Below are positions 10,148-12,079 of a stretch of 47,799 bases of DNA, one piece after another. How positions within the stretch are numbered: position 1 is the first letter of the stretch; every line of letters starts with the position of its first letter. This DNA comes from Chryseobacterium gleum. Lineage in GTDB: Bacteria > Bacteroidota > Bacteroidia > Flavobacteriales_D > Sanyastnellaceae. The notes under the pieces were generated by a model. That model had not been told where the DNA came from. It did no database searches and worked only from the letters and a program-made list of their open reading frames with translations. The stretch covers positions 1 through 47,799 of the forward strand of contig CAMBPD010000003.1 in NCBI GenBank assembly GCA_945869405.1, given 5' to 3'. A program made the position numbers and the translations under genes.

Positions 10148-10548
10148 GGGCCCGTTTCCCGGATTTGACAGCAAGAAGAATAGCTGAGTAAGCATGCAGA
10201 GCGTTTTACAGTGAGGCTCTGAAATATGAAACTGTAAGTCAGAAATGACAACACTTCCTACGCGCTTGCAGCCTAATCACCGGGTGTGATTATGCCTAAT
10301 CTCGAATTGGATTCGGGACAAGCACTGTCTCGTCGGCTGACCCCGCTCTTGGTTACCGGCAATGAGGCTTCATCAAAAAGAGATCGCAAAAGCCGAAGCT
10401 TGTAGGTAATTGTTAAAAAACTCAAGCTAAGTGTGTTGTTTGGTTGTCTGTAGCCTGACTCACATCGAAAACCAATTACAGAATAAGCATGTAGAAACCT
10501 TTGACATTCCTTGTTTGGACGTGGGTTCGACCCCCACCGGGTCCACCA
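10148..10548 (+). ncRNA. ssrA: tmRNA (transfer-messenger RNA)
   Basis: One-piece tmRNA of 401 nt. The 5' end GGGCCCG (10148-10154) pairs with CGGGTCC (10538-10544) in a 7-bp acceptor stem with one G-U pair, followed by A and an encoded CCA. The T-arm is GTGGG-TTCGACC-CCCAC (10521-10537). The tag frame runs from AGA at 10241 to TAA at 10274-10276 and encodes RNDNTSYALAA, preceded by TAAGTC as in the E. coli UAGUC context; the charged Ala would precede it. The YALAA ending is the standard protease degron. It rescues stalled ribosomes with SmpB. The Arg resume codon is unusual (see findings). Confidence 0.95.
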
Positions 10549-10576
10549 AAAAATGAGCTTCGGCTCATTTTTTATT
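10549..10576 (+). terminator. Terminator after tmRNA
   Basis: Stem ATGAGC/GCTCAT closed by the very stable C(TTCG)G tetraloop and followed by six Ts, directly after the encoded CCA of ssrA. A-rich on the left, so it could also act on the minus strand. Confidence 0.88.
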
Positions 10577-10579
10577 TTA

Positions 10580-10657
10580 GGGCAATTAGCTCAGTTGGTT
10601 CAGAGCACTACCTCGACAAGGTAGGGGTCACTGGTTCGAGCCCAGTATTGCCCACCA
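10580..10657 (+). tRNA. tRNA-Val (GAC), with C33
   Basis: 78 nt including encoded CCA. Acceptor stem GGGCAAT/ATTGCCC, D-stem GCTC/GAGC, anticodon stem CTACC/GGTAG, T-arm ACTGG-TTCGAGC-CCAGT. The 7-base anticodon loop is TCGACAA, giving anticodon GAC at 10615-10617, which reads GUC and GUU valine codons. All stems are perfect, so it looks functional, but position 33 (10614) is C rather than the almost universal U. It sits 31 bp after tmRNA and probably shares its promoter, although a terminator lies between them. Confidence 0.93.
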
Positions 10658-10782: not shown

Positions 10783-12063
10783 TCACTCCATAGCAGGAAG
10801 TATCGGTGCCATGCACGTTCCAAAACCAATTCTCACTCCATCGCGCTCTGCATGCCCGCTCATAATAACTGTATCACCATCTTGGATGAACGTGCGCTGC
10901 GAGCCATCGTTCATTGCAACGGGCTTCGTTCCTTTCCAAGCAATTTCGAGCATGCTTCCATACGAACCTTCATGAGGCCCGCTGATGGTGCCGCTCGCAA
11001 TCATGTCGCCACAGCGAATGTTGCATCCATTCACGGTGTGATGGGCCAGTTGCTGGGTCATGTTCCAATACATGTATTTGTAGTTGCTGTTTGAAACAAC
11101 CGTTTCTTGTCCATTTTCTGGCTGAATAGCGACTTGCAGATTAATAGCGATATTCTTCTTGCCATCGTATTCCAGGTATGGCAGCACCTTAGGGTCTTGA
11201 AGGGGGCCGGGCACTCGAAACGGCTCCAAGGCATCCAATGTAACTACCCAAGGCGAAACGGTTGACGCAAAGTTCTTGGCTAAAAACGGTCCGAGGGGAA
11301 CATATTCCCAACGCTGAATATCGCGAGCGCTCCAGTCGTTGAAGAGCAACATACCGAAAATATAATCGTCTGCCTCGGCTGTTGTAATCCTTTGCCCGAG
11401 TGGTTTTCCATCAAACGTTACAAAGGCCATTTCCAATTCGAAATCGAGCTGCTTTGTGGGTCCGAAGGTGGGTTGTGTTTCATCACTTGCATTCATCTGA
11501 CCCATGGGACGATGAATGGGAGTGCCGCTGATAACAATACTGGAGGCTCTTCCATGATAACCGACGGGCATATGTTTCCAATTGGGAAGGAGCGCCTTGG
11601 CCGGATCGCGAAACATGGTGCCCACATTTCGCGCATGATCCTCACTGCTGTAGAAGTCGGTATAGTCGCCAACGGCAATGGGCATAAGGAGTTGCACCTC
11701 GTTTTGGGGAAACAACACCTGGCGCACATGGTGCTCCTTATCGCGCAGATCGGGCATATCGCTTCGAAGCAATTTCGAAATACGGTTGCGCAATTCACGC
11801 ATGGCTTGTTTTCCATGGCGCATGCAACGATTCAACGTTGGGCTCACCATATCTTCCAATGTGAAAGGCAGATTCTCCAAATACCCCATGACGTGTAATG
11901 CCTTCAAGTCGACCAACTGATCGCCTATTGCGCAGCACACGTGCGGAAACTGACTTTCCGTTCTGAAAATACCAAAGGGCAAGTTTTGAATTGGGAAATC
12001 TGAATCTTCCGCTACATGCACCCATGAGCGAAGAGAGGGATCGTTTGCTTTACTGTCTGCCAT
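10783..12063 (-). CDS. fahA: Fumarylacetoacetase
   Basis: 426 residues, the family's usual length. ATG at 12063 is chosen over a TTG two codons upstream. Key stretches are DYTDFYSSEDHARNVGTMFR (metal-binding Asp and catalytic His), LDFELEMAFV (metal-ligand Glu pair), NDWSARDIQRWEYVPLGPF and SGTISGP. It hydrolyses 4-fumarylacetoacetate to fumarate and acetoacetate, the last step of tyrosine and homogentisate breakdown. The other pathway genes (hmgA, hppD, maiA) are not in the window. It is divergent from the DUF5819-like gene with 73 bp between start codons; candidate -7 boxes for both directions lie in that gap. Confidence 0.95.
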   Translation of the reverse strand: MADSKANDPSLRSWVHVAEDSDFPIQNLPFGIFRTESQFPHVCCAIGDQLVDLKALHVMGYLENLPFTLEDMVSPTLNRCMRHGKQAMRELRNRISKLLRSDMPDLRDKEHHVRQVLFPQNEVQLLMPIAVGDYTDFYSSEDHARNVGTMFRDPAKALLPNWKHMPVGYHGRASSIVISGTPIHRPMGQMNASDETQPTFGPTKQLDFELEMAFVTFDGKPLGQRITTAEADDYIFGMLLFNDWSARDIQRWEYVPLGPFLAKNFASTVSPWVVTLDALEPFRVPGPLQDPKVLPYLEYDGKKNIAINLQVAIQPENGQETVVSNSNYKYMYWNMTQQLAHHTVNGCNIRCGDMIASGTISGPHEGSYGSMLEIAWKGTKPVAMNDGSQRTFIQDGDTVIMSGHAERDGVRIGFGTCMAPILPAME

Positions 12064-12079
12064 AACCAAGGATTTGAGA

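What the first reader, a model, noticed from the sequence alone, without database searches (positions are those of the whole stretch)
10580..10657. tRNA-Val(GAC) with C at the invariant U33 position
Seen: all four stems pair perfectly and CCA is encoded, but the anticodon loop is T-C-GAC-A-A, so position 33 (base 10614) is C. U33 makes the U-turn of the anticodon loop and is nearly universal in elongator tRNAs. Either the organism reads GUC/GUU with an atypical loop, a second normal tRNA-Val(GAC) exists elsewhere, or the base is an assembly error.
Basis: partly seen in the sequence, partly recalled or inferred. Interest (0 to 1): 0.58.

Follow-up and report, generated by a model that had tools for sequence, protein, structure and literature searches.

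The report
Valine tRNA lacking its usual U33
This bacterium's valine tRNA has a C where nearly all tRNAs have a U at the turn of the anticodon loop; it is not an error but a variant that recurs in many bacterial phyla, and it goes together with a second change in the same loop.

Summary
Window 10580-10657 is an intact tRNA-Val(GAC), and base 10614 (position 33) is C; the loop is U32 C33 G34 A35 C36 A37 A38. It is not an assembly error: five other genomes of the genus carry the same C33 loop at the same place downstream of tmRNA. It is the only Val(GAC) gene found in the 85.6% complete genome, and the only one of its 30 distinct tRNAs without U33. It is also not peculiar to this organism. In six surveys 150 of 662 GAC rows had C33, mostly in Planctomycetota, Actinomycetota and parts of the window's own phylum. 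The other 85 distinct tRNAs in the loci I held all had U33. Positions 33 and 38 are coupled: A38 occurs with C33 in 102 of 150 rows but with U33 in 2 of 512, and G38 never occurs with C33. In one genus both states sit at the same syntenic locus. I read it as a working elongator tRNA with a coupled 33/38 loop variant. Why the coupling exists is open; discrimination against IleRS is my preferred guess. I did not find this described in the papers I could search.

The parts
10580..10657 (+). tRNA-Val(GAC) gene, complete, CCA encoded
   Evidence: ARAGORN; Rfam RF00005 65.0 bits; sequence
10613..10619 (+). anticodon loop U32 C33 G34 A35 C36 A37 A38
10614..10614 (+). C33 in place of the usual U33
   Evidence: conserved in 5 other genomes of the genus
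10619..10619 (+). A38, the position coupled to C33
10148..10548 (+). tmRNA (ssrA), conserved upstream neighbour in the genus
   Evidence: Rfam RF00023 123.6 bits; synteny
10549..10579 (+). 31-base spacer with a hairpin (ATGAGC..GCTCAT) and T run between tmRNA and tRNA; no sigma-70-like promoter found in it

Best explanation
This is a functional elongator tRNA-Val that reads GUC and GUU with C33 instead of U33. It belongs to a recurrent class of bacterial tRNA-Val(GAC) genes whose loop exists in two coupled states: U33 with U, C or G at 38, and C33 with A, C or U at 38. Shown: the gene is intact, conserved, widespread, and the 33-38 coupling is strong. Inferred: the U-turn still forms, since the contact from the 2'-OH of residue 33 to N7 of a purine at 35 (A35 here) does not need the base U; the N3-H bond of U33 to the phosphate of 36 is lost. 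Inferred, about 0.3: the coupling exists because U33 with A38 would make a G34-A35-containing, A37-A38 loop too much like that of tRNA-Ile, and C33 removes that resemblance.
For: Intact gene and same locus in the genus. All 118 loci of the C33 pattern scan are tRNA-Val(GAC); 85 of 85 other distinct tRNAs in held loci are U33. A38 with C33 in 102 of 150 rows against 2 of 512 with U33; G38 in 0 of 150 against 107 of 512. In genus g29, 5 C33/A38 and 4 U33/G38 genomes share the same upstream locus, and no intermediate was seen. GUU+GUC are 349 of 884 Val codons in 26 window ORFs. U-turn contacts: passages of PMC5372741, PMC8080527, PMC9023292. Bacterial Ile determinants include A35, U36, A37, A38, C4-G69, U12-A23, C29-G41, A73 (table passage of PMC9976931); of these this tRNA lacks only C29-G41 and U36, and C29-G41 occurs in 1 of 249 distinct GAC genes.
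Against: No expression, charging or decoding data. Ile-like body determinants do not differ by state: C4-G69 in 66 of 95 C33/A38 and 70 of 102 U33 genes. C33 also occurs with C38 or U38 (48 of 150), which the Ile idea does not require. C29-G41 is absent from other Val tRNAs too (0 of 14) and is in 8 of 71 other tRNAs, so its absence is weak support. Rows are related genomes, so the coupling is not a count of independent events.
Confidence: 0.6

Rival explanations
1. Loop-shape model: with U32-A38 and an unmodified A37, U33 could pair with A37 and collapse the seven-base loop to three; C33 stops that pair.
For: ViennaRNA gives pair 33-37 probability 0.67 for UU-GAC-AA and 0.00 for UC-GAC-AA. 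PMC5372741 (passages) describes cross-loop U33-A37 bonding and its blocking by A37 modification; tRNAs ending in C36 may lack that modification.
Against: The same calculation gives 0.56 for UU-GAC-AG, which is common (107 rows with U33 and G38), and the same values for GCC, yet tRNA-Gly(GCC) uses UU-GCC-AA in this genome and in 4 of 7 distinct Gly(GCC) genes.
Confidence: 0.2
2. Decoding balance: base 38 and base 33 tune ribosome binding in opposite directions; C33 weakens and A38 strengthens, so the two change together.
For: Both unbalanced corners are nearly empty: U33 with A38 2 of 512, C33 with G38 0 of 150. Tuning by the 32-38 pair is mentioned in PMC9023292.
Against: No binding data for these loops; C33 with U38 or C38 exists (48 of 150).
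Confidence: 0.25
3. Relaxed constraint: Val(GAC) is an auxiliary tRNA, since Val(UAC) can cover GUN codons, so U33 drifted to C.
For: A Val(TAC) gene exists in this genome; G003, 99% complete and same genus, has no GAC match. GNN tRNAs of four-codon families are called auxiliary in PMC4041420 (passages).
Against: Only U or C, never A or G, at 33 in 662 rows; strong coupling to 38; other tRNAs keep U33; the rest of the tRNA is conserved.
Confidence: 0.15
4. C33 is edited to U in the mature tRNA.
For: None found here.
Against: Editing would yield UUGACAA, present in 1 of 512 U33 rows (G803).
Confidence: 0.03
5. Assembly or sequencing error at 10614.
For: None; reads could not be examined.
Against: Same base in five other genomes of the genus and in named genomes of many phyla.
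Confidence: 0.01

Closest known systems
Canonical bacterial tRNA-Val(GAC) with U33 (e.g. loops UUGACAU, UUGACAC, UUGACAG)
   Same: Same cloverleaf, anticodon, A73 and A37; same syntenic locus in genus g29
   Different: Position 33 is U, and position 38 is almost never A (2 of 512)
Mammalian initiator tRNA-Met with C33 (PMC8080527 and PMC9023262, passages read)
   Same: C33 in place of U33 in a natural functional tRNA
   Different: An initiator, eukaryotic; here an elongator tRNA of bacteria
Sulfolobales tRNA-Cys(GCA) with C33 (PMC7668247, passage read)
   Same: Lineage-conserved C33 in a non-initiator tRNA
   Different: Archaeal, other anticodon; reported with a G27-U43 pair; those authors could not isolate it

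Membership tests
elongator tRNA-Val(GAC) | complete cloverleaf, no broken pair | tested here: met
elongator tRNA-Val(GAC) | anticodon GAC with A35, C36 and discriminator A73 | tested here: met
   determinants from PMC9976931
elongator tRNA-Val(GAC) | bacterial Val determinants G3-C70 and U4-A69 | tested here: inconclusive
   G3-C70 present; 4-69 is C-G, as in most GAC genes examined (183 of 249 distinct sequences), so U4-A69 is not a general requirement
elongator tRNA-Val(GAC) | U33 | tested here: not met
   C33; but 150 of 662 bacterial GAC rows also have C33, so U33 does not define this family
elongator tRNA-Val(GAC) | charged with valine and used for GUC/GUU | not testable with these tools
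   needs biochemistry
initiator tRNA | CAU anticodon and initiator features | tested here: not met
   anticodon GAC; separate tRNA-Met genes exist
pseudogene or decayed tRNA | broken stems, low score, no conservation | tested here: not met

The most novel reading that the evidence does not exclude
Across bacteria the GAC loop of tRNA-Val is a two-state switch: U33 with any base but A at 38, or C33 with any base but G at 38. The switch is selected, probably because U33 plus A38 on a G34-A35 anticodon invites mischarging by IleRS or misdecoding, so the 'invariant' U33 is dispensable where A35 carries the U-turn.
Probability: 0.35. Interest if true: 0.68.

Novelty: new variant of a known kind. 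Interest (0 to 1): 0.5.

Why it matters
U33 is taught as the invariant base of the anticodon U-turn. Nearly a quarter of the bacterial tRNA-Val(GAC) rows surveyed here use C instead (150 of 662; sampling was uneven), and they do so in a way tied to base 38. This gives a natural set of pairs, some at the same locus in one genus, with which the need for U33 in decoding and charging can be tested directly. It also warns annotators and tRNA-sequencing groups not to treat C33 in Val(GAC) as an error.

Tried and rejected
Rejected: assembly error and pseudogene; initiator tRNA; phage-borne tRNA (phage hits to the gene are under 90% identical and, in the 20 listed of 49, mostly annotated tRNA-Ile).

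The loop-collapse idea was my first favourite. I demoted it because UU-GAC-AG is predicted to collapse almost as much, yet is common, and because tRNA-Gly(GCC) keeps UU-GCC-AA. A test whether Ile-like body determinants separate the C33/A38 genes from the U33 genes was negative.

Led nowhere: the first pattern was mis-spaced and found nothing. The pattern missed Actinomycetota with a short D loop, so I repeated it as and used only that. Searches did not show a paper on C33 in bacterial tRNA-Val in their listings; I read passages of only some of the listed papers. Two papers most likely to bear on it (Saks and Conery 2007, PMC1852809; Freyhult et al. 2006, PMC1363773) are not held.

Rows dropped before counting: G829:C189, G934:C26 and G1020, because the stems do not pair; G981:C277 was in a call not used. 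Eight of 158 order rows and one of 151 phylum rows were not listed by the tool. G000, G012 and G044 are counted in both. The centres of four surveys were chosen because they have C33; without them Bacillota has 0 of 59 and Pseudomonadota 0 of 90.

Full report
What is there. The window holds one ARAGORN-called tRNA, tRNA-Val(GAC) at 10580-10657 on the + strand, also found by Rfam at 65.0 bits. The four stems pair without a mismatch and CCA is encoded. The loop reads U32 C33 G34 A35 C36 A37 A38; base 10614 is C. The gene follows a tmRNA at 10148-10548 (Rfam 123.6 bits), with a hairpin and T run in the 31-base spacer, and precedes a fumarylacetoacetase-like gene on the other strand (10783-12069, Pfam FAA_hydrolase).

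In the own genome. The assembly (2.64 Mb, 220 contigs, 85.6% complete) gives 31 tRNA matches. Of 30 distinct tRNAs, 29 have U33 and this one has C33. No second GAC gene was found; a Val(TAC) gene, loop CU-UAC-AA, is present. GUU and GUC make up 349 of 884 valine codons in 26 long window ORFs, so the codons this tRNA reads are not rare.

In relatives. A search with the tRNA and 20 upstream bases matched 59 of 60 genomes, the own one included. Among 8 genomes of the genus, own included, 6 have the GAC gene and all 6 have loop UC-GAC-AA; G003 and G004 have none by the pattern used. The tmRNA-hairpin-tRNA order is kept in the five other genomes of the genus with the gene and in L080. In the wider order the loop is UCGACAA, UUGACAG or UUGACAU, with a few others.

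Across bacteria. ARAGORN calls all 118 tRNA-Val(GAC) with C33: 81 UCGACAA, 24 UCGACAC, 6 UCGACAU, 5 CCGACAC, 1 CCGACAA, 1 ACGACAU. By record title the listed ones include Planctomycetota, Flavobacterium, Pedobacter and other Bacteroidota, Lysinibacillus, Vagococcus, Solirubrobacterales, Nocardiopsis, Sulfuricurvum, Desulfobacterales, Spirochaetes, Alphaproteobacteria, Chlamydiae, Elusimicrobia and Patescibacteria. In 20 of these genomes searched whole, no U33 copy of Val(GAC) was seen, and the Val(TAC) and Val(CAC) genes all had U33. Of 85 distinct non-GAC tRNAs in all loci I held, 85 have U33. Within what I sampled, C33 is thus tied to the GAC anticodon.

How common. Six surveys used patterns that leave 32, 33 and 38 free: order of the window (155 of 399 genomes with a match), its phylum (151 of 218), Bacillota (56 of 149), Planctomycetota (123 of 148), Actinomycetota (78 of 149) and Pseudomonadota (82 of 150). 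Except for the window's own, the phylum names follow from the record title of the centre genome. C33 was read in 28 of 150, 7 of 150, 1 of 60, 79 of 127, 34 of 84 and 1 of 91 rows. The single C33 rows of Bacillota and Pseudomonadota are the centres, which I had chosen for having C33.

Coupling. Over these 662 rows U33 goes with A38 in 2 of 512 and C33 in 102 of 150; G38 goes with U33 in 107 of 512 and with C33 in 0 of 150. Fisher's p of 1e-79 ignores relatedness and should not be read as a probability. The two exceptions are G803 (UUGACAA) and G801 (GUGACAA), both Planctomycetota. Better evidence against simple inheritance is genus g29 of the same order: five genomes with C33/A38 and four with U33/G38 share the same upstream gene region of about 0.9-2.1 kb at 68-73% identity, ending in the tRNA. 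The tRNA bodies differ at 33, 38 and a few other places, and neither UUGACAA nor UCGACAG is seen. In another genus (g14) C33 occurs with U38 unchanged. The direction of change was not determined.

How it probably works. The U-turn has a bond from N3-H of U33 to the phosphate of residue 36 (PMC8080527, legend passage), which C cannot make. It also has a bond from the 2'-OH of residue 33 to N7 of a purine at 35 (PMC5372741, PMC9023292, passages). With A35 the second bond remains possible whatever the base at 33. That C33 is tolerated here for this reason is inference. Recalled, not looked up: older work in which changes of U33 lowered but did not abolish function.

Why 33 and 38 are coupled. (a) Loop shape: nearest-neighbour folding predicts a U33-A37 pair with probability 0.67 in UU-GAC-AA and none in UC-GAC-AA, but also 0.56 in the common UU-GAC-AG, and the same numbers for GCC, while tRNA-Gly(GCC) uses UU-GCC-AA here and elsewhere. 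So this alone does not explain it. (b) Identity: A38 is a bacterial isoleucine determinant together with A35, U36, A37, A73, C4-G69, U12-A23 and C29-G41 (PMC9976931, table passage). Val(GAC) genes carry many of these: U12-A23 and A73 in 249 of 249, C4-G69 in 183 of 249, but C29-G41 in 1 of 249. Val(UAC), whose U34 is not in that Ile set, does use A38 with U33. This fits C33 as a guard against IleRS when A38 is present, but body determinants do not differ between the C33 and U33 genes. (c) Tuning of ribosome binding fits both empty corners but is untested. I put about 0.3 on (b), 0.25 on (c), 0.2 on (a) and 0.15 on drift.

What is known. In the passages I read, C33 is recorded for mammalian initiator tRNA-Met and Sulfolobales tRNA-Cys. 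My searches did not show a description of C33 in bacterial tRNA-Val, but the library is partial and two likely papers are not held. The genes themselves are surely in public tRNA databases (recalled).

Verdict. Interest is moderate: it breaks a textbook invariant in a regular, testable way, but the mechanism is not settled.

Noticed in passing
window 10148-10548 (+): A tmRNA gene that ARAGORN did not report but Rfam does (123.6 bits); an in-frame reading gives a tag ending VRNDNTSYALAA* (10238-10276).
   Followed up: partly
window 10549-10579 (+): The spacer between tmRNA and tRNA-Val holds a hairpin with a T run and no sigma-70-like promoter hit, so the tRNA may depend on read-through from ssrA; the arrangement is conserved in the genus. 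The terminator scan itself reported no site there.
   Followed up: partly
G195:C8 and G195:C14 (L335, L336): One genome holds both a U33 (UUGACAG) and a C33 (UCGACAU) Val(GAC) gene.
   Followed up: no
L080 (CAMAYP010000103.1): A metagenome record labelled Chryseobacterium gleum has the same gene order as the window over about 6 kb (74-86% identity) and the same tRNA; the label looks doubtful.
   Followed up: no
249 distinct Val(GAC) genes in held loci: Pair 29-41 is C-G in only 1 of 249, against 8 of 71 other tRNAs and 0 of 14 other Val tRNAs.
   Followed up: partly
G003, same genus: A 99% complete congener shows no Val(GAC) gene by the pattern used, so the gene seems dispensable in the genus.
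   Followed up: no
own genome, 220 contigs: No tRNA-Ile(GAU) was found; it may lie in rRNA operons missing from the assembly.
   Followed up: no
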